The translations under genes and the position numbers were made by a program. Of a DNA stretch of 43,504 nucleotides, positions 1 through 36,438 are shown in pieces. Each line of letters starts with the position of its first letter. Position 1 is the stretch's first letter. This DNA is from Fibrobacteria bacterium AD312. GTDB taxonomy: Bacteria; Fibrobacterota; Fibrobacteria; Fibrobacterales; Fibrobacteraceae. Where the stretch lies: contig LIUM01000045.1 in the NCBI GenBank assembly GCA_001462345.1, positions 1-43,504 on the forward strand, written 5' to 3'. The notes beneath the pieces were generated by a model. The model made no database searches. It was not told where the DNA came from and worked only from the letters and a program-made list of their open reading frames with translations.

Positions 1-60
1 CCTTATGTAAAGATAGAAGAACTATCACTCAATCTTGTACACTTTTTGGGGAGCACCTCA
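1..60. mobile_element. Probable insertion-sequence terminus (partial, cut by window edge)
   Basis: Read on the minus strand, this stretch starts with TGAGGTGCTCCCC at position 60 and continues to the window edge. It is nearly the same as the plus-strand sequence at 31363-31425: about 54 of 62 positions match with one gap. One copy sits inside a coding frame and the other is intergenic, so a mobile-element end explains both better than shared protein sequence. The TGA...CCCC...AAAAAGTGTACA pattern resembles IS3-type ends, but I cannot assign a family without a database. If correct, the element supplies the last roughly 19 codons and stop of the giant gene next to it. Confidence 0.5.
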
Positions 61-3000: not shown

Positions 3001-6000
3001 ACAGGAATAAAATCAGTTTTAGAAGAATCATTTATAGAGAATATGTTGTTCCGTGAAATATGAAAAGCTCCTTCTGATTCAAAGACAATATGGCCTTTTT
3101 CCGAAAAGAGGCTCATAATACTGTCTGTTACTGAAAGTGGTAAAATTTCTGAGAAAGCTCCAAGATCAGAGCCTAATGTTGAATTTATACGATTAATATC
3201 AAGGTCTATTCCTACGAAAGGGTTTTTGTCTATACGACAAGCGAGGAAATGTTCTCCATTTGCTCCCATGCACGTATTCTCGAAATTTTTTGAATCATAA
3301 GCCACATTTAAGGTATCAGTATTTGAGAGTCCATTCCATTGTAAATGATACTTACCTTTATATTCATAGAACCACACCCCTTTTGACTTCGTGGTATCTC
3401 TTGGTTCTCCATAGAAGGGGTTTTGTTTTACTCCATTAAGTGATTTCTCAAATAATCCCTTGCCTTTAGAATCCTCGGCGTAAAGACGTATTTGATAGTT
3501 ATCATCAAAAGCGCCCTCTAAACGCAAACTAACATCTAGTGATTCCTTACCAGCCACTATAGAAGAATTATTACTAGGTTCAAATACAACATTCGGATAA
3601 TCTGTTGAGGGATCTAAAGTACCAAGTGTTATTTCTACAGAATCTGTTACCCATTTACACGAATCACAAGATTTAACTCCAAGTTCTATAAATAGAACTG
3701 TATCTTCTAAAGCTTCACGTTGTAAATAGCCAAGAATTCCTTCATTACTTTGAGAAGTTTTAGATAGATAAGCAAATGAATCGGATTGATTTGCGGAAAC
3801 CACACTTATGCCTTCTGTATGCCATGAAGAATCAGCATCAAAACGATATCGTAAACGATAGATTGCTTTTTCAGATTTCATTGAAGGAGGGGCTATTCCC
3901 GAAATAGCGACTACAGGAGATTTTAAATAGTCATTTGAGTTTGGTGAAACAATAGAAGGGTAACGATCGCCTATGTGGAATAAATCAGTTTTAGTTGATG
4001 CATTTCCTGCAGCATCTAAACAAACAGCAGTCAAATAACGTTTTCCATTCATATTACCGACAATATTTACTGGAATGACAAATTCAATCGAATCAGTATG
4101 TAATAGGGAAGAATTATCCTTACGAAGAATTGGTTGCCATGAAGTATCTGCATCCAAGCCCTGAACACTATAATAGCAATTCATTCCAGTTCGGTTTGTA
4201 ACCACATCATTATTTTCGGAAACTTTAATAGTTGCTCCATAGTTCTTTGAAGAATCAGCATATACTAATTTATTACTTACCAAAGACTTAATGTTTGGCG
4301 AATTTCTATCTATGCGTACCTTTGCTAAATTTGAATATACTGCTGCATTTTTCGCATCATCACGAACGGAAGCACTAATGTTATAATCTCCGTCAGATAG
4401 CTTAATACTCTGCATTTCGGTCCATGTCCCAATAACGGAATTACTTATCTTATCTTCTATCCAAATGGAATCGCCAGCCCTATCAACTATTGTAGTATCT
4501 AATGCATGTATAAAATCCCATCCAATTGTAACAGGAGTAGAATCGCGACCAGAAAGATTTTCAGTAACAGAATAAGAAATACTTAACAAGCTATCTTCTG
4601 ACACATATGTGTAATTTACATCTCGTGAAGGACGAACCAATTTTTCATAAATTCCGCCAGTTCCTGCGTCCACTGCTCCTGATTTATTTATACTAAGAAT
4701 AGGAGCAGTTCTATCTATACGTAAATAAGCGTATTCCGTTGAATGATTCAAGTTTATATCATTCACTATTTTCCATTCTGAATCGGAAGGGTATTTCTTT
4801 CCTGCAGCTATATTTGCGACGAATCTATTCAATGAATCATACATCACTTTATTTGGCACTGCAAAGTCCACCGCATAAGCTTTCACTCGGTAAAAGCCGT
4901 CATTCAAAGTATTCGTTGTATTCAAGTCACTCCATGCTACAGCAAAATCTTTGGATATAATATCATACAGTGCAGGAAATTCACCAATATACGTAAATGT
5001 TCCCATGGAATCATTATTGTTTGAATTTTCACGTTCTAGAGTCCACCGCATAATTCGAATGTCAGGATCATTTATCGTATCATTCCATGAAAAACGCGCT
5101 GCAAAAAGATTACTATCTGGATTTTGCACTGAAGACGATGTAATGTCAAAAATTGGAGGTGTTTTGTCTACAATAAAACGAATATTATATATGTCACTAG
5201 TGTCTGGTTTTTCAGTTCCTGTAGAAGAATCCACAATTGCCGTTTTAAATCGCCAAATATATTCACCTGTTTTTAGATTCAAAGAATCCGTAGATATTTT
5301 AGACTTAAACGTTGCATCGCGATTCCCTTGCAGCATCACTTCCATTTCGTTATACATTATTTTATTCTGTTCGCCATCCTTAAAAATAGCATCATAGGCA
5401 CCTACAACACGGAACCCTTGATAATCAAGAACACTAGCATACGCTTCAAAGTCATTGACATTGTTTAGTACAACATCAAGAGTAGGCCATATAGGTTCAA
5501 GCATATTATCTGTTGCCTTAAAGAGATAATAGAATCGCTGAGTGTTAGATAACCCAATCTTATTCACCGTGCTGATTGTTACTGTATTTTGATTATCTTT
5601 TTGAATTGAAAGAAGGTTGTCGTAGTACTTGGTCGCTTCAAAACTGAACGTTCCATCTTTCTTAACAGGATGTTTTTCAGAACGAAGCTTCGTCCATTCG
5701 CCGCCAGAAGTGCGCTTATAAACTTCACATACATCATTTTCGTCTGGATCCTTCATAATATCACACTCCCAAGCAATTTCTTCCTGGTAGTTGAAACTCA
5801 TTTTAATTTGTCTTAAACGATGCGGCATCAAATCATCCACAACGAAAGAATATTTTTCAATCCAATTATCTACAGTAATTGTAGGAACATTGTAACGTTC
5901 CACATGACGAATGGGAACTAATTTAGGTGTAATATTTCCATTTGAGTCAAGTCCATCCACACGCTCCCAGCGATCCACCTTCATACCCATTTTTGACCAA

Positions 6001-7877
6001 TTTGCTCGAGACTTAAGGTCCAAAGAATTTTTTTGAAAATACGTGTAATGTTCCTTTTTGAGCGAACCTTTTTCCCCATAAAGACCAATTTCGCAAAGTG
6101 CTTCTGGATCATTCTTATTTTGCTCGTAATAACATTTTGCATCCACTGTGCGTTTTGTGGAATCACTTACAAATAACGCTAAGTTCACAAAGGGTTTCTC
6201 ATATAGAAAATCTTCCATAAGGTAAGGTATGACGGTAGCGGTATCGCCCTGAACTTGGGAATAGGTGTTGGAAGGACCATTCCATTTTGATTGATATTTG
6301 GACATTACAGGCTGGGCGTGAGAATCTATGAAGTCTAATGCCACAGGGTATATAGTTTCAAAAATTTCAGCACCGACCACTAACGCAACTGATGTAACCA
6401 TCGCTATTTTTATCGGTAAAGATAATGACGGATTCCAAGACAAACTCACGCCCACCATAGGAATCGCAATCATCGCAGCACTGACCAATACAGAGGATCT
6501 TTCTGGAGGCATTTGTGCTGTATTGAATGCTCCATCATAAGGATAGCGCTTCACATCTAGTCTCTCATCGTTTAAGAAAGATACATCCTGTCCTTTACTT
6601 GACCAGTCTGGAACAATGATAGATCCATTTTCTGTCAACCAAAATCCTGCTAGGCCTGCCATCATAGCAGTCATGACTTCAGCGTATTGTATCTCAAACG
6701 GATTATCATTTAAAATCTGTGCCCATGCGTTCATCAAAGGAACACGCAACACATCCGTTACCAATAATTTTGTAGTCATTTGCATACCGCCTGTCTTGGG
6801 ACTTGAAGCGGTAAGCCCTCTTGTTGCATGAACCAAGCGAAACATGGGCTGTTGATGGTTCGGATTGAATTCCTTGTGCTTCAAAACATTGATGCCTGCA
6901 TCTGTGTTGTCTGGATTGATGTAGGTGACCATCGGATCGCTTTCTTTGTAGCCAAACATACTTTGCAAGCCAATATCTGTGCCAATAGCAAGCACGCCTT
7001 GTCCAAGATTCGCAAACCCAAGGATTTTCAAGAACAATGCAATTCCAGTTGAAATCGGGTCGTTCGTCAAACCAGCGAGCAGGATGGAAGCCATCTCCAT
7101 TTCCACAAAAGCCATGCTTGAATAAATGCCTGTATTCGTCCAGTCGTGCATTGATACCAAGAGCTCAAGCGAGCGGACGCCTCCATGTGGAGAATCCAGC
7201 GTAATCACCTTATCCACATCCTCATTGTAGGCATCGCCCTGCACATACTCGCGAGAAATGACACCTCCCATACTATGGGCGATAAGAATGTTACGAGTGG
7301 GAGGCAGACGGTCATAATTGCCATTTTTTCGCCACTCATGCAAAAAATTTCTACCTTGAGCTTTGACTTCTTGTGCTTCTTCTATAAGCGACCGTCTAAC
7401 ATTGCAACCCGTCCATGTCGGATTCCCTAGCTCATGTGCATTTACGGCAGGAGATTCTGCTGGATTGATGAAGGAGCGCTGAGCGTAGATGTAGGGAGAA
7501 TTATAAAGATTCTCCTTGTTTAATGTCCAGTTACCGCTTGAATCGATTGTTCTGTCTTCAAAAATGAGTGAATCTAACCAATAAGTTAAATTGTATCCTT
7601 TATATTCGCCTTTGCAAGTGTTATTGTTCCAGTATTGCCCCATCGAATTGATGGCAATACCGCCTTGGTATTTTTCATCACATATTTCTTCTTCCTTGTG
7701 ATTGTTTTGAAATTGGAATGCATCTTCATCCATGCTTGAGCAATTCGGCAGACCATTTTTCTCATCAGATGCACCATGCACCATGATGACATTGTAATTG
7801 GTGATGGCTTCCATCGGTTGGTTGCTTGCGAGAGAAGCTATCGCAAAGATAGCCAATGTGAAGAATATTTTTTTCAT
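3..7877 (-). CDS. Giant secreted lipase/esterase-like protein with Ig-like repeats, 2,624 aa; 3' end possibly IS-derived
   Basis: Begins with a Sec signal peptide (MKKIFFTLAIFAIASLAS) followed by an alpha/beta-hydrolase region. An oxyanion-type VHG lies at residues 33-35, the nucleophile elbow HSMGG at 201-205 (Ser202) and LDSPHGG at 227-233, all typical of PGAP1/lipase-like enzymes. A hydrophobic stretch at about 465-520 may be membrane-associated. The remaining roughly 2,000 residues are rich in Asp, Ser, Asn and Trp, with repeated 'drtaP', 'Wnd' and 'YtxxI.A.D' patterns of Ig-like domains, including a FlgD-like one near 'NAGIYTVEISAKD'. It likely acts on the cell surface or is secreted; the substrate is unknown. 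The start overlaps the upstream lipoprotein stop by 4 bp (ATGA), so translation is probably coupled. The stop is TAA at 3-5. The last residues (EVLPKKCTRLSDSSSIFT) lie in the putative IS end, so the native C terminus, perhaps with a sorting signal, may be missing. Confidence 0.8.
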   Translation of the reverse strand: MKKIFFTLAIFAIASLASNQPMEAITNYNVIMVHGASDEKNGLPNCSSMDEDAFQFQNNHKEEEICDEKYQGGIAINSMGQYWNNNTCKGEYKGYNLTYWLDSLIFEDRTIDSSGNWTLNKENLYNSPYIYAQRSFINPAESPAVNAHELGNPTWTGCNVRRSLIEEAQEVKAQGRNFLHEWRKNGNYDRLPPTRNILIAHSMGGVISREYVQGDAYNEDVDKVITLDSPHGGVRSLELLVSMHDWTNTGIYSSMAFVEMEMASILLAGLTNDPISTGIALFLKILGFANLGQGVLAIGTDIGLQSMFGYKESDPMVTYINPDNTDAGINVLKHKEFNPNHQQPMFRLVHATRGLTASSPKTGGMQMTTKLLVTDVLRVPLMNAWAQILNDNPFEIQYAEVMTAMMAGLAGFWLTENGSIIVPDWSSKGQDVSFLNDERLDVKRYPYDGAFNTAQMPPERSSVLVSAAMIAIPMVGVSLSWNPSLSLPIKIAMVTSVALVVGAEIFETIYPVALDFIDSHAQPVMSKYQSKWNGPSNTYSQVQGDTATVIPYLMEDFLYEKPFVNLALFVSDSTKRTVDAKCYYEQNKNDPEALCEIGLYGEKGSLKKEHYTYFQKNSLDLKSRANWSKMGMKVDRWERVDGLDSNGNITPKLVPIRHVERYNVPTITVDNWIEKYSFVVDDLMPHRLRQIKMSFNYQEEIAWECDIMKDPDENDVCEVYKRTSGGEWTKLRSEKHPVKKDGTFSFEATKYYDNLLSIQKDNQNTVTISTVNKIGLSNTQRFYYLFKATDNMLEPIWPTLDVVLNNVNDFEAYASVLDYQGFRVVGAYDAIFKDGEQNKIMYNEMEVMLQGNRDATFKSKISTDSLNLKTGEYIWRFKTAIVDSSTGTEKPDTSDIYNIRFIVDKTPPIFDITSSSVQNPDSNLFAARFSWNDTINDPDIRIMRWTLERENSNNNDSMGTFTYIGEFPALYDIISKDFAVAWSDLNTTNTLNDGFYRVKAYAVDFAVPNKVMYDSLNRFVANIAAGKKYPSDSEWKIVNDINLNHSTEYAYLRIDRTAPILSINKSGAVDAGTGGIYEKLVRPSRDVNYTYVSEDSLLSISYSVTENLSGRDSTPVTIGWDFIHALDTTIVDRAGDSIWIEDKISNSVIGTWTEMQSIKLSDGDYNISASVRDDAKNAAVYSNLAKVRIDRNSPNIKSLVSNKLVYADSSKNYGATIKVSENNDVVTNRTGMNCYYSVQGLDADTSWQPILRKDNSSLLHTDSIEFVIPVNIVGNMNGKRYLTAVCLDAAGNASTKTDLFHIGDRYPSIVSPNSNDYLKSPVVAISGIAPPSMKSEKAIYRLRYRFDADSSWHTEGISVVSANQSDSFAYLSKTSQSNEGILGYLQREALEDTVLFIELGVKSCDSCKWVTDSVEITLGTLDPSTDYPNVVFEPSNNSSIVAGKESLDVSLRLEGAFDDNYQIRLYAEDSKGKGLFEKSLNGVKQNPFYGEPRDTTKSKGVWFYEYKGKYHLQWNGLSNTDTLNVAYDSKNFENTCMGANGEHFLACRIDKNPFVGIDLDINRINSTLGSDLGAFSEILPLSVTDSIMSLFSEKGHIVFESEGAFHISRNNIFSINDSSKTDFIPVYFGNSDKDGFTWINISSETLDALKNGWTVDPKNYGIHFKWNGMASSGSFPSEGKVKIYSEVITNNPDKLYARLDTITVNVKLPDLEISLPSKLSDFIILKNDTATASCDTCERRIFQLTYMDIPYSIKYRDAYVTIVIKNSKGNVVDTLVSSALQNASARDSAYHVRWNGKNSLGTTETNAGIYTVEISAKDVSENIVTKSSSFNVKYTESMRDMSNSKSIYISEAWKDSSIGDKYRYEPVADYLIDAKLSGWTLSDSIVKNGVHVSGTFSGTQNIIGYEPKRFSLGIKRHRENLDLVVVRRVEREIEYIDCWMFFNIKCWETGQKTKISYYVDTVHFSSSNLSQELITHTVANEEDEKYGYNDTYSKNYFDMVVFSLAGWESVKKETKDITDTSIWFATIKGRSEVIWSLEDITGNTKGFFIPPPSSNISSHSYLSDTLDVGCEPKYDENNILTESCSYNGNESETAEGYNPNKKLFNVTFSAIEDGKYYAVYDRPNPSSKTFHGDSFKRYRYIYFNIKLTIPDTAYWNAPFGMDNLVNRTIRFDHTNKTIYSNDNKGYWSAIENNDINNSLKGCAFFGTYFDGSNWQTNRSYGLLTPFEMQCLPFLPANVLPGGKNIFLFPDENATHMYPSYFDLKFYGVQDSSDYYQVLALGVAAASDSSKCDPIISNYDAAYWSLDTSKPKYFRCQTSLTSLDSVGVKRTPLLHHVNVDFYVGRNQLWSNNMNAHKQTITYPASLNWRSEIMDSCSNKMDYTDLLNGNSHCYKYYDVGSKIQYQVNDKFDSLWSILMTKNGIIKNNVNSPAAFWPPNLISSTLIDLTREMGSKEIPSDFTLYADTNNFVIRQDKFGVDRGAFFLILDSLEKIGNVLKSGDVERKLTISNPDSSKMTLSDTKDTLYIHADQWKNSSIYRRIDDTTAKLPERPNRSTLFTSKIFLNKNEWIKNIAVDSAKLFHLDTTDHSHLEVTGSFPAAREFYISYEVLPKKCTRLSDSSSIFT

Positions 7878-8833
7878 GGTTTTGTATCCAAGTGAGAAAA
7901 ATCGTTGCTGGTATAATGAATTTCATTGCCAAGAGAGTCAACAAAAAAACGATCTACGGGATCTGCATGAATCCAAATAGTGGAATAGTTTTTATCGAAT
8001 TTCAAATCCTCTATATTCAAAATAAAGTCTAGAAACATACTTTCTTGAATTTTTACATATTTTCCCAACAACTCGGTATATATTCCTTGCATTTGTGTTA
8101 TTGCACTATCTTTTTTTTCTCCATCAGCCCAAATATCTATTTGATGATTATTTAATTGATTTTTTTGAACACAAATAATATTGTTTTTATAAAAATGAAA
8201 ATCTAAACATGAAGCAAGCCAAGCTTCTTCCGCATTAAAGCGTTTTAGAAGTATGATCCCAGTCAATGTGTCTAATACACCATACTGGCAAGTATCGCCA
8301 CCTATTGTATTTGCAGGCATGATTCCCATTCCCAGCACCAACAATTTCTCATCCATCCAAGGTCGAATCTGAAAACGAGAAGCTGGAGAAGCAGAATACC
8401 GATGTAGTTTCCCTACACAGCTACCGCTCCACTTCGGCTTGATCTTTCTCGGCTTCTCACCGATTTTCCATAGAACGATTCCGTTTTCCAAATCGCCTCC
8501 ATATACCATTGAATCCGTTACTTGTCCCATGATGATTGTTTCCCAATTGACTGTATCGCCCCAGACCACTGGTTGCCTGCTCCTATAGTTCACCAAATGC
8601 AGTCCACCATTCCCTTTTATGCTATAGCTCTCGCTTGCATCGGCAGATATCATGCCAAACATCGCACCACCAGTCTGCGAATGAAAAGTGCGGTGAGATG
8701 TTTGCAACGCTAAAGAATCATTGACGATTCCCACAATCCGTCCTGCCGTTCGCTCACTGTCCCACCATTCCTCTGTACGGGAGCAAGAAATCAAAAAAAG
8801 AGCTATAGCGAGGATACAGAACAGCTTTTTCAT
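7874..8833 (-). CDS. Lipoprotein, paralogue family member 1 (319 aa)
   Basis: Unknown function. The N terminus MKKLFCILAIALFLISC is a lipoprotein signal with lipobox LISC, so the mature protein is lipid-anchored. It shares a strongly conserved N-terminal half with the genes at 8830-9771 and 10502-11440 (SCSRTEEWWDSER, then TSHRTFHSQTGG, and VNWET...QVTDSMVYGGDL). The C-terminal half has drifted except for YSTIWI and FVDSLGNEI near the end. The start codon overlaps the upstream paralogue stop (ATGA) and the stop overlaps the giant gene start, giving a tight lipoprotein-lipoprotein-giant unit. I infer a joint envelope role with the giant protein from this coupling. The internal repeats look beta-rich, but I recognise no named domain. 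Confidence 0.8.
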   Translation of the reverse strand: MKKLFCILAIALFLISCSRTEEWWDSERTAGRIVGIVNDSLALQTSHRTFHSQTGGAMFGMISADASESYSIKGNGGLHLVNYRSRQPVVWGDTVNWETIIMGQVTDSMVYGGDLENGIVLWKIGEKPRKIKPKWSGSCVGKLHRYSASPASRFQIRPWMDEKLLVLGMGIMPANTIGGDTCQYGVLDTLTGIILLKRFNAEEAWLASCLDFHFYKNNIICVQKNQLNNHQIDIWADGEKKDSAITQMQGIYTELLGKYVKIQESMFLDFILNIEDLKFDKNYSTIWIHADPVDRFFVDSLGNEIHYTSNDFSHLDTKP

Positions 8834-9771
8834 CGATTGCTCTCCAAGTGGGAAAATTCTTCACTAGTATACCAAATCTCATTGCCAAGAGAGTCAACAA
8901 AATAGCGATTTAGCGGACTTGTATAAATCCAAATAGTGGAATAGTTTTCATTAAATTTTAAGTTTTCCAAATTCAAAATAAAATCAGTGAAAGATGGTTC
9001 ATCTACTTTTATGTAGTTTCCCCATAATTCGGTAAATTCTAGATTTCCATTAATTTTCTTACTATCGGATAATTCAGCGTTTACAACAATATCTATCTGA
9101 TATAAACCCTTTGCTTTTAAACATATAATCTGATTATTTGAATATCGAATATCCAAACATTCAGAAAGCCAAGCTTCCTCTTCGCTGTTAAATCGACTTA
9201 ATACCGCTTCACTAGTTGAGGTATCTAATACGGCATATTGGCATGTATCCGCCCGAAGTTGATTTGTCGGTGTTTTTCCAAGTAGCAAGAATTTACCATC
9301 ACGCCAAGGCCTTACTCGAAAATCGGGAATAGAACTTTTGCGTAACCTAAATGCACAGTTTCCACTCCATTTTGGTTTTATTTTTTTGGGTTTCTCACCG
9401 ATTTTCCAAAGAACAATTTCATTCCATAAATCACCACCATACACCATTGAATCAGTCACTTGTCCTATGATGTTTGTTTCCCAATTGACAGTATCGCTCC
9501 AGACCACAGGTTGCTTGCTCCTATAGTTAACAAGATGCAGACCACCATGATTTTTTACAATATAACTTTCACTTGCATCTGCTGATATCATGCCAAACAT
9601 CGCGCCACCAGTCTGCGAATGAAACGTACGATGTGACGTTCGTAAGGCTAATGAATCATTAACAATGCCAACAACCCACCCTACATTGCGTTCACTGTCC
9701 CACCACTCCTCTGTACCGGAGCAAGAAATCAAAAAAAGAGCTACTAGTGTAGTGTATAAATAGAGTTTCAT
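8830..9771 (-). CDS. Lipoprotein, paralogue family member 2 (313 aa)
   Basis: Second copy of the paralogous lipoprotein family. The frame is open up to 9852, but the start at 9771 is preferred. It gives MKLYLYTTLVALFLISCS, a clean lipoprotein signal with lipobox LISC, and is preceded by GGAGGG at a proper distance. The longer version would place an unlikely 27-residue extension before the signal. It is much closer to the copy at 10502-11440 than to the one at 7874-8833; for example, both carry GDLWNEIVLWKIGEKPKKIKPKW. The stop overlaps the next start by 4 bp. Function unknown; it is probably an outer-membrane or surface-anchored component. Confidence 0.8.
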   Translation of the reverse strand: MKLYLYTTLVALFLISCSGTEEWWDSERNVGWVVGIVNDSLALRTSHRTFHSQTGGAMFGMISADASESYIVKNHGGLHLVNYRSKQPVVWSDTVNWETNIIGQVTDSMVYGGDLWNEIVLWKIGEKPKKIKPKWSGNCAFRLRKSSIPDFRVRPWRDGKFLLLGKTPTNQLRADTCQYAVLDTSTSEAVLSRFNSEEEAWLSECLDIRYSNNQIICLKAKGLYQIDIVVNAELSDSKKINGNLEFTELWGNYIKVDEPSFTDFILNLENLKFNENYSTIWIYTSPLNRYFVDSLGNEIWYTSEEFSHLESNR

Positions 9772-9867
9772 ATAGAGCCCTCCGTTCGCAAAAAAAATAA
9801 AGTTTTTTAACAAAACAGTAAATCTACTTTGTATGTTTCTCGGTACCATCAAAATTCCAATAGATTA

Positions 9868-10293
9868 CTAATAGGAATAAAGAGTTACAGACGATGGATT
9901 CAGGTTTACATTCTCTTTGACTGTTGGAAAAATTTCGATGGAATTTGTATTTTCGCACAAACCGAAAACTTCCATGTTGTTGAAGGTAAAATTCCCCTCA
10001 TCGTCGATATCGACGTCTGCTCCTGCACCGATTTGCAAGTGCCGAAGGGTTATCTTTTTTTCAAAATAGGCTGTATCGAATCCGTCTAGGTGAAGAGTCG
10101 AGGTTCCAGTGCGGTTAATCATTTCCGGTAACTCAGTATCGACATTAATCGAGTCTATGGTAGCATTGCCAAATGTACCCGAAAGCGACCATTGGATTTC
10201 AACAGGTTGAGGGGTTACGACTTCCGACGATTCGTCTGAAAAACACCCATAAAGCGCAAAAAATGTAACGGCAAGGAATATTATTTTTTTCAT
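9868..10293 (-). CDS. Small lipoprotein, 141 aa, unknown function
   Basis: Begins MKKIIFLAVTFFALYGC, a lipoprotein signal with lipobox LYGC, followed by a Ser/Glu/Thr/Pro-rich linker and a predicted beta-rich domain with many Thr, Asp and Asn residues. I recognise no catalytic motif. An AGGAGA lies upstream in the transcript. It sits between two near-identical lipoprotein paralogues, in the place left by a collapsed fourth copy. It may therefore be an insertion into the array, or an original member whose neighbours were duplicated around it. Confidence 0.7.
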   Translation of the reverse strand: MKKIIFLAVTFFALYGCFSDESSEVVTPQPVEIQWSLSGTFGNATIDSINVDTELPEMINRTGTSTLHLDGFDTAYFEKKITLRHLQIGAGADVDIDDEGNFTFNNMEVFGLCENTNSIEIFPTVKENVNLNPSSVTLYSY

Positions 10294-10403
10294 CTGCTCT
10301 CCTTTTCTATAAACCTAACAATTATTTATAAAACCAACACCCCACATCTGACAATTTTATGTAAAAAAAAATACATGCTTTCATGGAAATCGGTCTGTGA
10401 AAA

Positions 10404-10505
10404 TTATTGGCAGGCGTTTCGCGAAAATAATCTGTAAAAAGCAACAAGTCCACCTGCGAGAACAGCTATCGCAGAAATAGCGAGGATACAGATTAGCTTT
10501 TTCAA
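10404..10505 (-). pseudogene. Remnant of a fourth tandem lipoprotein gene (33 codons, TTG start)
   Basis: Directly after the 312-aa paralogue, the reading begins TTGAAAAAGCTAATCTGTATC and encodes LKKLICILAISAIAVLAGG and onward, ending at TAA after 33 codons. The nucleotides match the start of the gene at 7874-8833 (ATGAAAAAGCTGTTCTGTATC; both preceded by GGAGAGCAA) and sit in the same position behind a paralogue. The simplest reading is a duplicated two-gene unit whose second gene lost its ATG and most of its body. A short membrane peptide could still be made from TTG. Confidence 0.6.
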
Positions 10506-11440
10506 GGGTTGCTCTCCAAATGGGAAAATTCTTCACTAGTATACCAAATTTCATTACCGAGAGAGTCAACAAAATAACGACTTAGTGGGCTTGTATAAAT
10601 CCAAATGGTGGAATAGTTTTCATTAAATTTTAAGTTTTTTATATTCAAAATTAAATCAGTAAACATGCTTTCATGTACTTTTATGTGGTTTCCCCATAAC
10701 TCGATAAATTCTAGTGCTCCATTGATGTTCTGACTATCAGATAATTCACCGTTTACTACAATATCTATCTGACCTCCAGCCGATTGTAGACATATAATCT
10801 GATTGTCTGAATATCGAATATCCCTACATTCAGAAAGCCAAGCTTCCTCTTTGTTGTTAAATCGATTTAATACGGCTTCACTTGTTGTGGTATCTAATAT
10901 GGCATATTGGCATGTATCCGCCCGAATTGATTTTGTCGGCGTGTTTCCTAGTAGCAAGAATTTTCCGTCACGCCAAGGCCTTACTCGAAAATCGGGAAGT
11001 GAACTTTCACGTAGTTTAAATGCACAATCGCCACTCCATTTAGGTTTTATTTTTTTTGGCTTTTCACCGATTTTCCAAAGAACTATTTCATTCCATAAAT
11101 CACCTCCATACACCATCGAATCTGTCACTTGCCCTATCAAATTTGTTTCCCAATTGACAGTATCGGCCCAGACCACAGGTTGCTTACTCCTATAGTTAAC
11201 AAGATGTAGACCACCATTATCTTTGACACTATAACTTTCACTTGCGTCTGCTGATACCATGCCAAAAATCATACCTCCAGTCTGCGAATGAAAAGTACGA
11301 TGTGATGTTCGTAAGGCTAACGAATCATTAACAATGCCAACAACCCATCCTACAGTACGCTCGCTGTCCCACCACTCCTCCGTACGAGAGCAAGAAATCA
11401 AAAAAAGTGATACTAATGTAACGTATAAATAGAGTCTCAT
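10502..11440 (-). CDS. Lipoprotein, paralogue family member 3 (312 aa)
   Basis: First gene of the lipoprotein array on the minus strand. The signal MRLYLYVTLVSLFLISC has lipobox LISC. It is nearly identical over long stretches to the 8830-9771 copy, including DSERTVGWVVGIVNDSLALR and the C-terminal DSLGNEIWYTSEEFSHLESN, so the duplication is recent. Divergence is concentrated in a middle segment (about residues 150-240), which could reflect diversifying selection or gene conversion of the ends. No known domain; the product is presumably a surface or periplasmic lipoprotein. Confidence 0.8.
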   Translation of the reverse strand: MRLYLYVTLVSLFLISCSRTEEWWDSERTVGWVVGIVNDSLALRTSHRTFHSQTGGMIFGMVSADASESYSVKDNGGLHLVNYRSKQPVVWADTVNWETNLIGQVTDSMVYGGDLWNEIVLWKIGEKPKKIKPKWSGDCAFKLRESSLPDFRVRPWRDGKFLLLGNTPTKSIRADTCQYAILDTTTSEAVLNRFNNKEEAWLSECRDIRYSDNQIICLQSAGGQIDIVVNGELSDSQNINGALEFIELWGNHIKVHESMFTDLILNIKNLKFNENYSTIWIYTSPLSRYFVDSLGNEIWYTSEEFSHLESNP

Positions 11441-11475: not shown

Positions 11476-12147
11476 TTACTTCTTTTTTTTGTCTTTGACC
11501 GCTAAGCGTTCCACATATTTAAACAGATTGTTATAGACTTCTAAAAAATCCTCTACCCAAATTGGGTCGCGCTCCCCAATCAACGAGAATGTATTTTCAA
11601 GCGTATGCTGAGAGTTATAAAGCCCCACCACAGTTGAAGACGCTCTCGAGATCGAACTATTTTTCGACTGAGGCGCAAACGTCAAAGTTCTCGCCCTATA
11701 TGATCGCTTTAATCGTGCAATCAAACTCAAACGAACCGCGAGCAAATCTTCTCGAGCTTTTAAAATTTTCCCTTCTTCAATCCAAGACTCAATCTTATCT
11801 AAACGACGAGAAAAAGAATCCCGTTCTGGAGCAGGAATCAACTGTTTCTTTTGACTTAAAGTCGTCTTTAATTCTGCAATGACTTTTCTTAAAAAAGGAG
11901 CAGACCAAAAAACAATTTTTGGATTATGGATTTCTTCATGCCATTGTTTTGAGGGCTTATTCTTTGAAACCCAAGAGTCTAAGCGATCACACATCAAAAC
12001 GGCTTCTGGTGTTCGATCTACTAAAAGATATTCTTCTACTCGCTGCAACATAAAATCAGCATAAGAAAGCTTCCAATAAGGCATCCGACGTGATTTTCGA
12101 ATGACCTCAACTTGTTCTCGAAGCTCTGTTATACGATTTCGAATCAA
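11476..12147 (-). CDS. Unknown cytoplasmic protein of the MotAB-like operon, 223 aa
   Basis: No signal peptide or membrane segment. The sequence is helical, rich in Arg, Lys and Glu, and ends in a basic run (KDKKKK). Conserved-looking features are LREQVEVIRKSRR near the start and a central W-rich segment (KQWHEEIHNPKIVFW). Its start overlaps the stop of the OmpA-like gene by 4 bp, so expression is coupled to the membrane complex. In beta- and gammaproteobacteria a comparable four-gene order occurs (DUF3348, DUF802/TolQ-like, OmpA, DUF2894). This protein holds the DUF2894 position, but I cannot show homology. It is a likely cytoplasmic partner or regulator of the complex. Confidence 0.65.
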   Translation of the reverse strand: MIRNRITELREQVEVIRKSRRMPYWKLSYADFMLQRVEEYLLVDRTPEAVLMCDRLDSWVSKNKPSKQWHEEIHNPKIVFWSAPFLRKVIAELKTTLSQKKQLIPAPERDSFSRRLDKIESWIEEGKILKAREDLLAVRLSLIARLKRSYRARTLTFAPQSKNSSISRASSTVVGLYNSQHTLENTFSLIGERDPIWVEDFLEVYNNLFKYVERLAVKDKKKK

Positions 12148-12782
12148 TGCTTGTTCTCCGATTTACGAATAGGAGTTACACCTATTTCTACTCTTCGATT
12201 TAAGCGTCTATTTTCATCTGTTGTATTGGGGTATTTGGGGTGATATTCTCCAAAGCCCGCGGCAAAAAGACGATCTGCTGGGAACCCTTGAGCAATCAAC
12301 GTTTTGACCACATTAATAGCACGTTCCGCAGATAAGTTCCAGTTTGTATAAGTGGATGATTTAATAGGTGTATCGTCTGTAAAACCAGAGACCATAATCA
12401 CATCACTTGTATCCAAGATATCTAATAAGCCTTTTCCAATCGCTTGAATCACCTGAGTGCCTTCTGGAGTGAGTTCTGCCCCATTCAAAGGGAATAAAAA
12501 GGATGCCTGGATTTGAATATTACCATCTTCTAAAGCGATTAAGCCTTTTTCAATTGTACTTTTTAAGCTACTAGAGAGCAATGCGTTACGTTCCATTGCA
12601 ATTTTTCGCATTTCTTCTTGACAACTTAAAACTTCTTCTTCTGTTCGAGTTAAGTCTTCGGCTTTTTGTTCTTTAAGGGTGGCCATCGCTACAAAAGCTA
12701 AAATAAATAGAGCTAATAAACCGATAGTCAAATCCGTAAAGACAAACCAGGACGCATTTTCCTCGCTTTTGCTTTTACGCAT
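12144..12782 (-). CDS. MotB/ZorB-like protein: one N-terminal TM helix plus OmpA peptidoglycan-binding domain
   Basis: A 212-residue protein. The single membrane helix at about 13-32 starts with FTDLTIG, and Asp17 sits where MotB-type stators carry the proton-binding acid. A short coiled coil follows (about 36-70), then an OmpA_C domain (about 85-205) with GFTDDTPI, NWNLSAERA and ENRRLNRRVEI, which bind peptidoglycan. It is therefore expected to be a cell-wall-anchored stator subunit pairing with the MotA/TolQ-like product of the upstream gene, which it overlaps by 1 bp. No flagellar genes are nearby, so a role in swimming is unlikely. TolR, MotB and ZorB are alternatives; the OmpA domain rules against a plain ExbD/TolR. 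Confidence 0.85.
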   Translation of the reverse strand: MRKSKSEENASWFVFTDLTIGLLALFILAFVAMATLKEQKAEDLTRTEEEVLSCQEEMRKIAMERNALLSSSLKSTIEKGLIALEDGNIQIQASFLFPLNGAELTPEGTQVIQAIGKGLLDILDTSDVIMVSGFTDDTPIKSSTYTNWNLSAERAINVVKTLIAQGFPADRLFAAGFGEYHPKYPNTTDENRRLNRRVEIGVTPIRKSENKH

Positions 12783-14371
12783 TATCCCTCCGATTTCACA
12801 TTAGAAGCAGCAGAAACACGCTGAGCTTGTTCTAAAACTTCTAATAAAATTTCTTGGGTCTTCACCGCATTTTCCATTAACACTTCGCTAGCTCTTTCAT
12901 GGAAGGCCTGTAAAGAGGCTTGCAATTGTTCCATGAAATTATTTTCATCTTCATGTTCTGCCGTATCGCCAGAAAGCTTTTCAATAACCGTTTCTAAACC
13001 ACGACGAAGCACTTCTAAGTTAGCCGCAAATTCCGATTGATTCACACGCATTAATGTGGCTGCTTCAGAAATATTATTCGCAAGCACATCGGCGGCTTCC
13101 AATTCCTTAGTCGTTCTAGATTCTACGTCGGTGACTAAGCGTTTTTGAACTTCAGCTAAAGCAGAAGAAGATTCTGTCAACTGACTAAATTCCACACCAA
13201 TCTTTTCGGCAAGCGCACCAAATTCTTTTTGAATCGAAGAAGAAAATGCAGAGGCATCCACTTCTGTCTTTTCAATAACACGAGATGCGATCGAACGTAA
13301 ATGTTCCACACCCTCCAGCTGTTTTGCCTGAGTGGCTTCCATAGAAGAAGCAAATGATTGAGAAGAACGAAGAGACTCTTCTTTAAGAGACTGTATAAAT
13401 GCATTCGATTGTTCTTTTAATGCGTTCACCTGACCAGAAATAGTCTCTGCAAAAGTACTAGCCATTTGCTGAATAGATTTTTTAATTTCATCAGAAGCAA
13501 AGTGCTCCATCGAGGACCAATTTTTTTGCATCTGACTTAAAAATTCTTCTAACGATTTTGATTGATTCTGAGTCACTTGAGTGATAGATTGTACCGATTC
13601 TTTTTGCAAAGAAATAAACGTCTCTGAAATAGAAGCGAGTGTAGCCTCTTGATTCTTTTGCATATTTTCAGCTAAAGCAGCCATCAATTCGTGTACATGA
13701 GAGTCAGAAGATTTTTCTTGTACGCTAAATGTCGGAATCAATTCAAGCAAAGTAAACTTGTCTAAATCAGAAACAAAATCTGAATTTTCTTTTTCAACAA
13801 GAGCATGAGACGCATTCAAAACTAAAGCAGAGAACAAGCCACACAAGCTAGTTCCAAAAATACCCTTCATACTAGAGAAAATCGACTGGATAGAATCCAA
13901 AGTATTTTGAGTCGTCGAGTTATCAATCGCGGCACCTGCCGTAGATACAGCAAGCATCAAACCAAAGAACGTTCCTAAAAGGCCTAATAAAACAACGACG
14001 CCTCCCATGCTCCGCCCAACTTGAACCGTCGCTTTCACGTCTAAGATTTCAGTCACTAGTTGAGAAGAAAATGGCACCTTATGAGCAGCAAGCCTTTTTA
14101 CAACAGCAATGCGATCGCCTACAATTCCTGGTTCTATTTTATCCAGAATTAAACCGTTAGAATGAGCCTTTAATACTTCTCGTTCTTTCTCGATTTGCTT
14201 CATGAGCTTAAAATCTCGCCATTGAGAACCGAGGAAAATGGCAAAAATAGCTACGACAACAATCCAACCGAATAATGGTGCTCCAAAATAGAAGGCACTG
14301 GCAACAAGGACTAAAAAGCCTATAACGGTCAATAAAAGGATTAGCTTGGAATTATTTTTCATCCGTTTCAT
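12782..14371 (-). CDS. MotA/TolQ/ExbB-family proton channel with long coiled-coil tail, 529 aa
   Basis: Two N-terminal membrane helices (about 9-28 and 30-48) are followed by a cytoplasmic segment. The MotA/TolQ/ExbB core has helices at about 128-150 (GGVVVLLGLLGTFFGLMLAV) and 180-200 (GTSLCGLFSALVLNASHALV). Residues about 230-529 are a Gln/Glu/Ser/Ala-rich coiled coil with apolipoprotein- or chemoreceptor-like repeats. The long cytoplasmic tail is the hallmark of ZorA-like and DUF802-like proteins rather than of flagellar MotA. With the OmpA-like partner it should form an ion-driven complex spanning membrane and wall, the tail acting as a shaft or signalling rod. The start lies 1 nt after the upstream stop; a second ATG three codons in has a better-spaced Shine-Dalgarno and may be the true start. 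Confidence 0.85.
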   Translation of the reverse strand: MKRMKNNSKLILLLTVIGFLVLVASAFYFGAPLFGWIVVVAIFAIFLGSQWRDFKLMKQIEKEREVLKAHSNGLILDKIEPGIVGDRIAVVKRLAAHKVPFSSQLVTEILDVKATVQVGRSMGGVVVLLGLLGTFFGLMLAVSTAGAAIDNSTTQNTLDSIQSIFSSMKGIFGTSLCGLFSALVLNASHALVEKENSDFVSDLDKFTLLELIPTFSVQEKSSDSHVHELMAALAENMQKNQEATLASISETFISLQKESVQSITQVTQNQSKSLEEFLSQMQKNWSSMEHFASDEIKKSIQQMASTFAETISGQVNALKEQSNAFIQSLKEESLRSSQSFASSMEATQAKQLEGVEHLRSIASRVIEKTEVDASAFSSSIQKEFGALAEKIGVEFSQLTESSSALAEVQKRLVTDVESRTTKELEAADVLANNISEAATLMRVNQSEFAANLEVLRRGLETVIEKLSGDTAEHEDENNFMEQLQASLQAFHERASEVLMENAVKTQEILLEVLEQAQRVSAASNVKSEG

Positions 14372-14372
14372 C

Positions 14373-15287
14373 CTAAGGGTTAGTGTTAAAAGACTGCGAA
14401 TTCTGGCCGAACAAATCTAATTGCCCTCGCGAAAATCCACGTAAAAAAAGCGACCACTTCTCTTGATACCATCTGCCGATCAGTAAAGTAAGACCTGCCG
14501 CATAATCACAAAAATCATCTGTATAAGCTAAGAATGGGTTTTCATAAGCACCATTCAAATCCCAAAGTCGCCCTACATTTCTTGCACAACTCATAGATGT
14601 AGGGTAATAACGAGGTTTAGCGCTCGTACTAAAACCAGCAAAAAAACGTTTAAGAGCCACTTCTGCTAATGAAGCCCTAAGACTCGTCACTAAATCGGTT
14701 TCTTGTTGGCGAAGAGAGGCTTCTAAACAGGGTAGCACTTTGGAGAGCGCATCGGTTGCCCCTTCTTTATACCAATAAGAGCTCAAACGTTCTTGCAAAT
14801 GAGACGCCCGAGAAGACATCATCACTAAAAGCTTTTCAGCATCGCCAACCATTAAATGGATTGTAGAAAAATAAAGATTTTTAACTTCTTGCTTTGTTAA
14901 TTTAGAAGAAAAACGCCAACCTTGATCTTCTTGAATAAGCCACTCACTTTGAAGTAACTGCCTGTGAATTTCATCTGTAGAAAAGCGTTGATTCCACTTA
15001 AAACGGAATTCATCGAATTTAGTAGAAAATTCGTCTAGCAAATGGGGGAACTCAGACTCCCATAATTTCCATGCAGAAGGGCTAAAAGAGATTGTTTCTG
15101 GACCAGCCATTGTAGCTGAAGGGTTAGAATCATTGGCGTCTAAATGTTCGTATAAAGCAATAGACCATGTCGCATTCATACTTTGAGATAAATTGGCAAT
15201 CATCGAAGCCCGATTAGGCCGCGACCCAAAACGCACAATACTTGTGCCTGTCATTTTTCGAATAGCTCTGCGAAATGATTCGTCCAC
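14373..15287 (-). CDS. Unknown protein upstream of the MotA-like gene, 304 aa
   Basis: Soluble and helical, with no signal peptide. It carries several Trp-rich segments (MNATWSIALYEHL, SAWKLWESEFPHLL, FRFKWNQRF) and a C-terminal region with CARNVGRLWDLNGAY and LIGRWYQEKWSLFLRGFSRG. I recognise no family with confidence. Its place directly before the channel gene matches that of DUF3348 proteins in proteobacterial four-gene clusters, and both are Trp-containing helical proteins of similar size, but this is an analogy. It ends 1 nt before the channel gene, so a structural or regulatory partner in the cytoplasm is plausible. The start ATG follows a 27-nt gap after the beta-helix gene. Confidence 0.65.
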   Translation of the reverse strand: MDESFRRAIRKMTGTSIVRFGSRPNRASMIANLSQSMNATWSIALYEHLDANDSNPSATMAGPETISFSPSAWKLWESEFPHLLDEFSTKFDEFRFKWNQRFSTDEIHRQLLQSEWLIQEDQGWRFSSKLTKQEVKNLYFSTIHLMVGDAEKLLVMMSSRASHLQERLSSYWYKEGATDALSKVLPCLEASLRQQETDLVTSLRASLAEVALKRFFAGFSTSAKPRYYPTSMSCARNVGRLWDLNGAYENPFLAYTDDFCDYAAGLTLLIGRWYQEKWSLFLRGFSRGQLDLFGQNSQSFNTNP

Positions 15288-15314: not shown

Positions 15315-16016
15315 TTAAAAGCCTGATTCGATACGATGCCATACCGATGTAGAGACTCTCTTCCCCTTTCCAGCTAATTCATCACTTTCTTTACGTACAT
15401 TGGCTTCTAAATTCTCTTTAATTAACTGTAAATTGCCCAAAAACTTCCCCCCTTTTTCCACATACAAACCAAAAACATTCCCCACAATATCTGTGGCATC
15501 TACATTTACAGAACCTGCACCCACGGATAGAGCAAAACGATTACGAGAAAAAGAGCATTTTTTCAAATAAACTTGATTAGAAGAATTAACCCATAACCCA
15601 TAGTAATTGTTTATAAATTGCACCGATTCAAAAACGCCTCCAGATTGAGTCACTGAATTTCTAAAGGCATTTTCTACCACTAGATTTTTTACGTAAAAAG
15701 GCGCCGTATTAGACACAAAATGAACCCCACTCCAGCTTTCTGTGGTATCTAAACTTTTAAAAACAACAGGCTTTTTCTCAGTGCCCAATATTTGCACTGG
15801 GCCGCGCAAAAGGAGCTTCGCATAAGGCATCATAAAGACTTGAACACCAGGTTCAATAATCAAAGTATCTGTACCAGAAAAGACAACACTAGTCTCTAAC
15901 AAGTAGGGACTATTTTTTTCAGTAAGAACTACCTTCCCTGATTCAATCACAGGAAAAGGAACTTCTGCCCATGTTAATGAGAAAAGGACACTGAAAAAAA
16001 ACAGTGATTTTTTCAC
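15315..16016 (-). CDS. Secreted right-handed beta-helix repeat protein, 233 aa
   Basis: The signal peptide MKKSLFFFSVLFSLTWA is followed by repeating strands typical of parallel beta-helix folds (e.g. TLIIEPGVQVFM, KLLLRGPVQILG, GVHFVSNTAPFYVKNLVVENA, ESVQFINNYYGLWVNSSNQ, KKCSFSRN). 'GTEKKPVVFKS' is a motif of beta-helix proteins in which low-complexity rungs are stacked. No catalytic Asp triad of polysaccharide lyases is obvious, so a binding or structural role is as likely as an enzymatic one. The start overlaps the stop of the lipoprotein gene by 4 bp. It is probably part of the same operon as the MotA/MotB-like genes and would place a component in the periplasm or outside. Confidence 0.75.
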   Translation of the reverse strand: MKKSLFFFSVLFSLTWAEVPFPVIESGKVVLTEKNSPYLLETSVVFSGTDTLIIEPGVQVFMMPYAKLLLRGPVQILGTEKKPVVFKSLDTTESWSGVHFVSNTAPFYVKNLVVENAFRNSVTQSGGVFESVQFINNYYGLWVNSSNQVYLKKCSFSRNRFALSVGAGSVNVDATDIVGNVFGLYVEKGGKFLGNLQLIKENLEANVRKESDELAGKGKRVSTSVWHRIESGF

Positions 16017-16831
16017 ACAAAGCTCCTTAATTTCAGCTTCTGGATCACACGTAATTTAGGAATTTCTTCTTCTGAATATTTATCAGAAACATTGACTTTT
16101 CCATTCACTTCTAAAACGGATTCTTCTACTACACCCATAGTGACGTTAAAAAGAAGAAACCCGCTACCCACAATAAAATCTTCACTAGTCATTTTTATTT
16201 GAGGATTATTACTTACTTGTTTGTATCGCATATTCATACGAATTTTTGCAAGTAAAACGCCACTGCGATTAAATACATCTTCTAAAGTAAAATTTTTATA
16301 AACCACTATTTGTTCATTATTTTCTCCAGTAATCGCGTGCTGGCGTTCCCACGATTCCCCTACGCGAACAGGCTTTCCAGGAAACACGGGTTGGATTTTC
16401 AAAAATAGCTTCGCAATTTCTAATTCATTACTTTCTGGATGAGACACATAATTATCCATCACGGGCTCACTCATCAAACCATCTTTAGCTATTTTAAACT
16501 GAAAATTTTGAGAGCTCAAATACTGTTCCACATAGCGATATTCTTCGACAGAACGTTTATCGGACGTGTATTCCACAGAATCTACTTTTATTTCAAAGCG
16601 GGCCGAACTATCATCATAAGCCATCAATAAAGAAGAGGTGACAATTAAACGAAGTGACGTTTTCATCGATTCTAAAGAATCTACTGGCACAGAATCGTCT
16701 ACAAAGACATTCATGTCGGCATTCATGACAAATTTTTGGTCTGCGATGTTTTGAGTATTAAAGACTAAATTGGTCGTTTGTTGATCACAAGCCAATAATA
16801 AAAAGCTGGCTAAAAGCAAAGATTTCTTCAT
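16013..16831 (-). CDS. Lipoprotein (DUF6263-like), 272 aa
   Basis: MKKSLLLASFLLLAC is a short lipoprotein signal with lipobox LLAC. The mature part is beta-rich and carries VFPGKPVRVGESWERQ, which resembles the 'P.kpV.vGdsW' signature of DUF6263-type lipoproteins seen in Bacteroidota and relatives. The function of that family is not established. It is the first gene of the apparent six-gene operon ending with the MotB-like and 223-aa genes, and starts 51 nt after tadA ends, so read-through from tadA is possible. Confidence 0.7.
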   Translation of the reverse strand: MKKSLLLASFLLLACDQQTTNLVFNTQNIADQKFVMNADMNVFVDDSVPVDSLESMKTSLRLIVTSSLLMAYDDSSARFEIKVDSVEYTSDKRSVEEYRYVEQYLSSQNFQFKIAKDGLMSEPVMDNYVSHPESNELEIAKLFLKIQPVFPGKPVRVGESWERQHAITGENNEQIVVYKNFTLEDVFNRSGVLLAKIRMNMRYKQVSNNPQIKMTSEDFIVGSGFLLFNVTMGVVEESVLEVNGKVNVSDKYSEEEIPKLRVIQKLKLRSFV

Positions 16832-16882: not shown

Positions 16883-17380
16883 TTACAAGGGTTTTGCACC
16901 TGTATCGCCTTTACGGGCACGCATTTCTTGAAAAAAGAGTTGTAGAAGACCTAGACACTCCTCCGCAAGGACCCCAGAAGTTATAACGACATCTCGCTTG
17001 AGAGCGTTATTTGAAATGACATCGACCGTAGTACCACAGCCGCCAAAGCGGGAATCTGGAGAGCCATAAACGACTCTTGAAATGCGGCTATTCAAGATTG
17101 CCCCAGCACACATTGGGCAAGGTTCTAATGTTACATAAAGCGTACAATCACTTAAACGCCAGTTTTCTACTGCCGAAGAAGCGGCTCCAATCGCTAAAAT
17201 CTCTGCATGAGCCGTGGCATCTTTTAACGTCTCTACCTGATTATAGCCTTTTCCAATGACTTTGCCCTCTTTCACAATCACACAGCCAATAGGCACTTCT
17301 TTCGCATCAAAAGCCATTTCCGCTTGGCGTAAAGCCAAACGCATGAACTTTTCATCTTCACTTTGTTGAATTTCATCCAT
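16883..17380 (-). CDS. tadA: tRNA adenosine(34) deaminase TadA
   Basis: Zinc-dependent deaminase that converts A34 to inosine in the tRNA-Arg(ACG) anticodon; essential in most bacteria. At 165 residues it has the usual family length. The zinc and proton-shuttle signature is complete: HAE at 58-60 (His58 ligand, Glu60 catalytic) and PCPMCAG at 87-93 (Cys88 and Cys91 ligands). The substrate-binding segment GYNQVETLKDATAHAE and the C-terminal helix are present. Start chosen at MDEIQQSEDEKFM. Cytoplasmic housekeeping gene; an intrinsic terminator from the upstream gene separates it from the DUF3788 gene. Confidence 0.95.
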   Translation of the reverse strand: MDEIQQSEDEKFMRLALRQAEMAFDAKEVPIGCVIVKEGKVIGKGYNQVETLKDATAHAEILAIGAASSAVENWRLSDCTLYVTLEPCPMCAGAILNSRISRVVYGSPDSRFGGCGTTVDVISNNALKRDVVITSGVLAEECLGLLQLFFQEMRARKGDTGAKPL

Positions 17381-20301: not shown

Positions 20302-20515
20302 AAACATTCCTTTTTTATAAGAGCACTCTTAAAAAGCTATTATTAATGACACCCATACAATAAAATAATCATCTTTTTAAAGGAATATATAAAGAAGAGT
20401 ATCAAAGTATCAGTAACTCAATCACAAAAGCAACTTTACCCCTCTGAAACCATTATCTTAGCGTCAAAATCTCTTGCCAAGTTATATTTCTTAAAATATA
20501 TTTTGCCTAATCTTT

Positions 20516-20588
20516 GGGGATATAGCTCAGTTGGTAGAGCGATGCGTTCGCAATGCATAGGCCAGGGGTTCGAATCCCCTTATCTCCA
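20516..20588 (+). tRNA. tRNA-Ala (CGC anticodon)
   Basis: A 73-nt cloverleaf. The acceptor stem GGGGATA/TATCTCC contains the G3:U70 pair that marks alanine tRNAs. The D arm has AGCTCAGTTGGTAGAGC, the anticodon loop reads TTCGCAA (anticodon CGC, decoding GCG), and the T arm is AGGGGTTCGAATCCCCT. The discriminator is A and the CCA tail is not encoded. The last 14 nt are repeated twice downstream as part of a 99-bp tandem repeat. Confidence 0.93.
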
Positions 20589-20786
20589 TTTAAACAAATG
20601 AGAACCCCTTGGGGGTCGATGTGCACTCCGTTTTGCTTCAGCAAATTACGGAGAGCTATACCCGGATGGGTACTCCCCTTATCTCCATTTAAACAAATGA
20701 GAACCCCTTGGGGGTCGATGTGCACTCCGTTTTGCTTCAGCAAATTACGGAGAGCTATACCCGGATGGGTACTCCCCTTATCTCCA
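20575..20786. repeat. 99-bp tandem repeat carrying the tRNA-Ala 3' end (2 full units + 14 bp)
   Basis: Unit 1 spans 20575-20673, unit 2 spans 20674-20772, and a partial third copy covers 20773-20786. The units are identical. Each starts with TCCCCTTATCTCCA, the 3' strand of the tRNA T arm plus acceptor stem, so the tRNA end appears three times. Each unit also holds a strong hairpin (CTCCGT...TTTGC...GCAAA...ACGGAG with a small bulge) and CCCCTTGGGG. This is where tyrosine integrases attach, so these may be stacked att-like sites, or a tandem duplication of tRNA flanking sequence. Confidence 0.85.
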
Positions 20787-30191: not shown

Positions 30192-30201
30192 AAGGTTGAT
30201 T

Positions 30202-31356: not shown

Positions 31357-31362
31357 TAATGG

Positions 31363-31425
31363 TGAGGTACTCCCCAAAAGGTGTACAACACTGAGTGGAT
31401 AGTGCTTCTATCTTTACTTAAACAC
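31363..31425 (+). mobile_element. Remnant of an insertion-sequence end
   Basis: Begins TGAGGTACTCCCC, 6 nt after the DprA-like stop, and matches the reverse complement of window positions 1-60 (about 54 of 62 identical, one 1-nt gap). No transposase frame follows; 31426-31512 is a short AT-rich stretch leading to the next gene. It is a solo end or a decayed copy. It separates the nuclease-like gene from the RecQ-DprA pair and may have brought it in. Confidence 0.5.
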
Positions 31426-31512
31426 AGGAAACAGGCAAACGCAATAACAAAGCTCAAATAATTAGTTCTTTAGGAATGATATCACGTAGGAAGCATTATA
31501 GGCAATTATAAA

Positions 31513-36426: not shown

Positions 36427-36438
36427 AGGAACTCCCCC

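What the first reader, a model, noticed from the sequence alone, without database searches (positions are those of the whole stretch)
11476..15287. Four-gene ion-driven envelope complex not linked to flagella, Tol or Exb genes
The order is: unknown protein, TolQ/MotA-like channel with a coiled-coil tail of about 290 residues, MotB/OmpA-like stator with an Asp at the start of its helix, then a second unknown, all with 1-4 nt spacing. The long tail recalls ZorA (Zorya defence), but the Zorya effectors ZorC, ZorD or ZorE are absent. The order resembles DUF3348-DUF802-OmpA-DUF2894 clusters of proteobacteria, whose role is also unknown.
Basis: partly seen in the sequence, partly recalled or inferred. 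Interest (0 to 1): 0.68.

Follow-up and report, generated by a model that had tools for sequence, protein, structure and literature searches.

The report
Fibrobacter core Zorya-III-like motor complex
The four genes encode a peptidoglycan-anchored ion motor with a long cytoplasmic tail and two partner proteins, a distant relative of the anti-phage system Zorya type III, but every well-sequenced genome of the bacterial class Fibrobacteria carries the partners as single-copy core genes, and some lineages have dropped the motor while keeping the partners and the tip of the tail.

Summary
Observation confirmed. On the minus strand lie F (unknown), A (4-TM MotA/TolQ-type channel with a ~320-residue tail), B (OmpA stator, Asp17) and G (unknown), nearly gapless. 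B matches ZorB3 along its length (2.9e-46), A matches ZorA3 best, G is detectably DUF2894-like; F~DUF3348 is only suggestive.

New here: F and G occur in every near-complete Fibrobacteria-class genome tested (F 72/72, G 68/68), essentially single copy; F is in none of 28 other-class genomes of the phylum. Cas1, a patchy defence yardstick, is in 23/68. F's tree follows taxonomy. B is missing from genera g5/g8 and families f3-f5, and exactly there A has lost channel helices TM3-TM4, keeping a 1-2 TM anchor, a coil or PKIEIP-repeat linker, and the conserved tail tip. These genes remain under purifying selection.

Best reading: the constant unit is F + tail tip + G at the inner membrane; the PG-anchored motor is an input module that can be lost. 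Housekeeping envelope function is likelier than dedicated phage defence; the function is unproven. New variant of a known kind.

The parts
14373..15287 (-). F: 304 aa soluble helical protein; position of ZorF (DUF3348) in Zorya III; no Pfam, NCBIfam or PADLOC hit
   Evidence: orthologues in 72/72 near-complete class genomes; alignment A1
12782..14371 (-). A: 529 aa ZorA-type channel subunit, TM1-TM2, TM3-TM4, then coiled-coil tail
   Evidence: PADLOC ZorA3 2.2e-11 best, MotA_ExbB 0.003 below cut-off; motifs and conservation
12812..13081 (-). A tail tip (about residues 431-520), the most conserved part of A outside TM3-TM4 and the only part kept in all architectures
   Evidence: mean identity to window 0.64-0.71 against 0.18-0.30 in the middle of the tail; kept in motorless lineages
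12144..12782 (-). B: 212 aa ZorB/MotB-type stator, one TM with Asp17, OmpA peptidoglycan-binding domain
   Evidence: PADLOC ZorB3 2.9e-46 over residues 6-209; PF00691 2e-16; invariant D17, D136, N147, R154, R192, N195, R196
11476..12147 (-). G: 223 aa helical protein with C-terminal G-[PL]-Y-N...DPxWxEDFLE motif; DUF2894 (ZorG)-like
   Evidence: profile match to DUF2894 set P=2e-4; rank test; alignment A2
15315..16016 (-). Secreted right-handed beta-helix protein, conserved upstream neighbour in motor-bearing Fibrobacteraceae
16013..16831 (-). DUF6263-like lipoprotein, conserved immediately upstream in motor-bearing Fibrobacteraceae and in the motorless f4a lineage
16883..17380 (-). tadA-type deaminase, first gene of the conserved seven-gene run in most Fibrobacteraceae (housekeeping neighbour)

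Best explanation
A divergent Zorya-type-III complex (order F-A-B-G) that the class Fibrobacteria inherits vertically as core genes. Shown by sequence: A and B carry the parts of a 5:2-type ion motor (channel TM3-TM4, stator Asp, peptidoglycan-binding OmpA domain), A has a long cytoplasmic tail with a conserved tip, and F and G are always kept with that tip. Shown by comparison: lineages without B have lost exactly TM3-TM4 of A and keep a short membrane anchor, a spacer and the tip. Inferred mechanism: the tip is the docking site for F and G at the inner membrane; in motor-bearing species, engagement of B with peptidoglycan opens ion flow and turns or strains the tail, passing envelope state to F and G; in motorless species the tip is a constitutive membrane tether for the same F-G unit. 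Inferred role: a housekeeping envelope or membrane-associated function rather than a dedicated, exchangeable anti-phage system.
For: B best matches ZorB3 (155.7 bits against 79 for ZorB1) and A best matches ZorA3. Same gene order as DUF3348-DUF802-OmpA-DUF2894 in Azoarcus, Caballeronia, Variovorax and Aquabacterium; these score as Zorya III parts. G is DUF2894-like. F in 72/72 class genomes >=90% complete and 0/28 outside the class; G in 68/68 high-quality; Cas1 in 23/68. F tree follows families and genera. Conserved chromosomal setting, e.g. holA, greA and argJ-type neighbours around F-A-G in f3 and f4. B in 54/68 and absent from g5, g8, f3, f4, f5; TM3/TM4 motifs present only where the lineage has B. 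Tail tip as conserved as the channel. dN/dS 0.04-0.28 for F, tip and G, motorless lineages included. In Zorya I/II the ZorA tail, ion flow and PG binding are needed and ZorAB recruits the effector (PMC11890865).
Against: No binding, expression or phenotype data for any member in this class. F~DUF3348 is not significant by itself (P=0.014; mismatched controls reach 0.011), and the tail tip is not detectably similar in sequence to the proteobacterial tail. Zorya III was reported active against phages in E. coli (PMC8565338), so a constitutive defence role is not excluded; core distribution argues against, but does not disprove, defence. Direction of change at the base of the class (motor lost in f3-f5, or gained in f1/f2) depends on rooting.
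Confidence: 0.6

Rival explanations
1. It is a genuine Zorya type III anti-phage system that Fibrobacteria have fixed: B senses cell-wall disturbance by phage, the motor signals through the tail, and F and G are the effectors or regulators.
For: ZorB3/ZorA3 matches, same gene order as Zorya III, and phage protection by a Stenotrophomonas Zorya III in E. coli.
Against: Present in all near-complete genomes of a class, single copy, tree following taxonomy, housekeeping neighbours, while Cas1 is in one third. Motor lost in several families with the rest kept under purifying selection, whereas ion flow and PG binding are needed for Zorya I/II defence (PMC11890865).
Confidence: 0.25
2. An ordinary Tol/Exb/Mot or gliding (GldLM-like) energiser with unrelated neighbours.
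For: A has the MotA/TolQ/ExbB channel signature (weak PF01618, 0.003).
Against: PF01618 and MotB_plug are below cut-off while ZorA3/ZorB3 match best; the genome has six other, clearly recognised MotA_ExbB genes; long tail with conserved tip; fixed F and G partners; B ends in OmpA, not an ExbD/TolR or GldM domain.
Confidence: 0.05
3. The motorless versions are decaying remnants, and only the four-gene form is functional.
For: Loss of B and of TM3-TM4 looks like reduction; the g5 cluster has lost the upstream lipoprotein and beta-helix genes.
Against: Intact ORFs kept across g5/g8 and f3-f5 with dN/dS well below 1 (F 0.05-0.15, tip 0.01-0.19), and kept in every near-complete genome.
Confidence: 0.05

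Closest known systems
Zorya type III (PADLOC; ZorF DUF3348, ZorA DUF802, ZorB OmpA, ZorG DUF2894; note that PADLOC-DB swaps the F and G letters)
   Same: Gene order, tight operon, B homologous along its length, ZorA3-like channel with long tail, G with the GPxN-containing C-terminus of DUF2894
   Different: F and G fail all Pfam and PADLOC models; A lacks a detectable DUF802; vertically inherited class-wide core instead of patchy; extra conserved lipoprotein and beta-helix genes; motorless forms exist
Zorya types I and II
   Same: ZorAB-type motor with long ZorA tail and PG-binding ZorB
   Different: No ZorC, ZorD or ZorE in the cluster; B and A score lower with the type I and II models
TolQR, ExbBD, MotAB, GldLM
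   Same: Distant superfamily of 5:2 ion-driven membrane motors
   Different: Different partners, tail and stator domain; no linkage to tol, exb, flagellar or gld genes

Membership tests
Zorya (any type) | ZorA homologue with MotA-type channel and long cytoplasmic tail | tested here: met
   ZorA3 2.2e-11, ZorA2 2.1e-9, ZorA1 6.9e-5; NCBIfam ZorA models hit far below cut-off; TM3/TM4 motifs shared with ZorA3
Zorya (any type) | ZorB homologue with TM Asp and PG-binding OmpA domain | tested here: met
   ZorB3 2.9e-46 over residues 6-209; invariant D17 and OmpA residues
Zorya type III | DUF3348 protein (ZorF) as first gene | tested here: inconclusive
   Right position and an aligned N-terminal LSQ..IAL stretch, but P=0.014, no Pfam/PADLOC hit in any of 19 diverse members; reverse search ranks DUF3348 first but E=0.05
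Zorya type III | DUF2894 protein (ZorG) as last gene | tested here: met
   Profile match P=2e-4; top nine of 1694 ORFs found by a DUF2894 profile are all G; reverse E=4e-4. Below curated Pfam cut-off
Zorya type III | DUF802 repeats in the ZorA tail | tested here: not met
   No PF05650 hit in P0002, whereas Azoarcus A has one at 2.3e-32. DUF802 covers the variable middle of the tail and is not in the published definition of the type
Zorya type III | Anti-phage activity | not testable with these tools
   Needs a plaque assay
Anti-phage defence systems in general | Patchy, horizontally exchanged distribution | tested here: not met
   F 72/72, G 68/68 in the class, tree following taxonomy; Cas1 23/68

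The most novel reading that the evidence does not exclude
The Zorya III kind is built around a conserved F + tail-tip + G unit at the inner membrane that serves a housekeeping function; the ion motor is a detachable sensor or drive, and anti-phage Zorya III in Proteobacteria is a specialised or secondary use of it.
Probability: 0.4. Interest if true: 0.8.

Novelty: new variant of a known kind. Interest (0 to 1): 0.62.

Why it matters
ZorF and ZorG are the unexplained parts of Zorya III. A class in which they are universal, and in which several lineages kept them together with only a membrane anchor and the tail tip, is a natural experiment that isolates the part of the tail that matters and makes the question what F and G do testable without the motor. 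It also warns that defence-finder hits to Zorya III may include core, perhaps non-defence, gene sets.

Tried and rejected
Pfam, NCBIfam and PADLOC for F and G: nothing above chance, also not for 19 and 18 diverse members. PF11828 search of the own genome: no hit, uninformative because no control genome rang. AlphaFold2 of F (6 rows, mean pLDDT 68.7) and G (3 rows, 69.1): all or mostly helical; no PDB fold match with E below 0.001, so fold gave no function. The weak protein-A / affibody hits in the PDB search of A are coiled-coil noise. Proteobacterial genomes could not be searched as genomes ('of' accepts only genome handles); proteobacterial references came from plasmid and chromid records and so are few and nearly all Burkholderiales. 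F gave no tblastn match in the plasmid collection even at E 1. ZorB-like matches in phage records never cover 80% of B. Rejected: flagellar stator, Tol, Exb, GldLM; decaying remnant. F. succinogenes envelope proteomics lists several MotA/TolQ/ExbB proteins (PMC6851124, PMC4619616), but which one, if any, is A could not be checked.

Full report
Observation. The window lies in a 2.83 Mb Fibrobacteraceae genome assembly (G000, contig 45). Four minus-strand genes stand in the order F, A, B, G at 15287-14373, 14371-12782, 12782-12144 and 12147-11476. F and A are separated by one base; A/B and B/G overlap by one and four bases. Orthologues suggest that A starts at its second methionine. Upstream, on the same strand, run a beta-helix protein (16016-15315), a DUF6263-like lipoprotein (16831-16013) and a tadA-type deaminase (17380-16883).

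What A and B are. A shows only a sub-threshold MotA_ExbB match in Pfam (0.003), but matches PADLOC ZorA3 at 2.2e-11, ahead of ZorA2 and ZorA1. Its TM3 (LLGLLGTFFGL) and TM4 (FGTSLCG) motifs align with proteobacterial ZorA3. B matches ZorB3 at 2.9e-46 across residues 6-209, far ahead of ZorB1 (8.1e-23) and ZorB2 (2.8e-7), and the NCBIfam family PRK09040 at 4.7e-45, below that family's cut-off. Across the Fibrobacteraceae and proteobacterial B proteins aligned, the membrane Asp (D17) and OmpA residues such as D136, N147, R154, R192, N195 and R196 are invariant. Zorya I/II structures place such an Asp against a ring of ZorA Ser/Thr residues in a 5:2 complex, and show that PG binding, ion flow and the tail are needed (PMC11890865). 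That A and B here form such a complex is inference from homology.

The two comparisons are one. The paper that named Zorya type III defines it as ZorA and ZorB flanked by a DUF3348 protein (ZorF) and a DUF2894 protein (ZorG), and reports that one from Stenotrophomonas reduced phage plaquing in E. coli (PMC8565338). PADLOC-DB itself swaps the letters F and G. The best proteobacterial matches to B in the plasmid collection lie in annotated DUF3348-DUF802-OmpA-DUF2894 clusters.

F and G. G is homologous to DUF2894 by three tests: profile-profile P=2e-4 around the G-P-x-N ... P-x-[WY]-[LV]-E-[DQ]-F-L motif; a DUF2894 profile ranks nine G proteins first among 1694 ORFs of the Fibrobacteria loci; the reverse search ranks DUF2894 proteins first at E=4e-4. 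The members are related to each other, so the nine ranks are not nine independent tests. For F the evidence is suggestive: same place in the operon, an N-terminal LSQ..IAL stretch, P=0.014, and DUF3348 ranked first in reverse at E=0.05; mismatched controls reached P=0.011. The tail tip shows no significant sequence similarity to proteobacterial tails. No member of either family is recognised by Pfam.

Distribution. An F profile finds one copy in each of 72 genomes at least 90% complete of the class, and in none of 28 genomes of other classes of the phylum. G is found in 68 of 68 high-quality class genomes and 16 of 16 genera. Cas1, taken as a yardstick for a patchy defence gene, is in 23 of 68. 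The tree of F groups by family and genus. In f3 and f4 the cluster sits among housekeeping genes (pseudouridine synthase, KaiC-like ATPase, holA-type, greA-like, argJ-like; names beyond the Pfam-checked ones are from sequence recognition). This is vertical inheritance.

Motorless forms. B at E<=1e-30 is in 54 of 68 high-quality genomes: in f2 and in f1 except genera g5 and g8, and not in f3, f4 or f5. In those lineages A has no TM3/TM4 motif, while it is present in all A proteins of B-bearing lineages. Three architectures replace the channel: two TM helices then coiled coil (most of f4), one TM helix then coiled coil (f3, f5), and one TM helix then a proline-rich PKIEIPKIE repeat (g5, g8). All end in the tip, NQxE...E(R/K)A.E.L.ENA.K.QE.L.E.L. 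In motor-bearing A the tip is about as conserved as TM3-TM4 (0.64-0.71 against 0.58), and the middle of the tail is not (0.18-0.30). dN/dS in motorless pairs is 0.05-0.15 for F, 0.01-0.19 for the tip and 0.10-0.28 for G: these genes are maintained. On the F tree the presence of the motor needs two changes; g5/g8 fall within the order whose other members have it, so at least one loss is likely (support for f2 outside is 92/83), while the state at the base of the class depends on rooting. The lipoprotein stays directly upstream in motor-bearing f1 and in motorless f4a.

Mechanism, with status. Shown: the parts and their co-retention. Inferred: F and G dock on the tail tip at the inner membrane; the motor, where present, feeds peptidoglycan or envelope state into that unit. 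Inferred from distribution: a housekeeping role rather than exchangeable defence. Not shown: binding, localisation, any phenotype. Structure models of F and G are of middling confidence, helical, and match nothing in the PDB.

Verdict. A new variant of a known kind: a divergent Zorya-III-type complex that is core in a bacterial class and has naturally motorless derivatives.

Noticed in passing
L053:6853-7398 and 7305-7943; L054:7123-7668 and 7575-8168; L101:5647-6186 and 5135-5740: In the motorless genera g5/g8 the 3' end of G overlaps the 3' end of a convergent guanylate kinase gene by about 94 bases, repeatedly.
   Followed up: no
L053:6183-6860, L102:7519-8061, L052:6474-7172: PKIEIPKIE-type pentapeptide repeats link a single TM helix to the tail tip in motorless A; the number of copies varies (2-13 by a simple pattern), like a length-variable spacer.
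   Followed up: partly
window 7874-11440: Three tandem paralogous lipoprotein genes (about 312-340 aa, one with a TTG start), downstream of the cluster on the same strand.
   Followed up: no
window 3-7877: One 2624-aa secreted protein with a lipase-like start and FlgD-type repeats by eye.
   Followed up: no
window 27969-42273: A stretch that starts A+T-rich (GC about 0.28-0.33) with RecQ-like, DprA-like, DUF262-like and type I restriction-modification-like genes (HsdM, HsdS by eye): a probable defence island, separate from the finding.
   Followed up: no
window 20515-20589: tRNA-Ala (CGC) gene on the plus strand.
   Followed up: no
L053:4868-5410, L052:5173-5703: A TlpA/AhpC-TSA-type thioredoxin-fold protein lies directly upstream of F in most g5/g8 loci.
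   Followed up: partly
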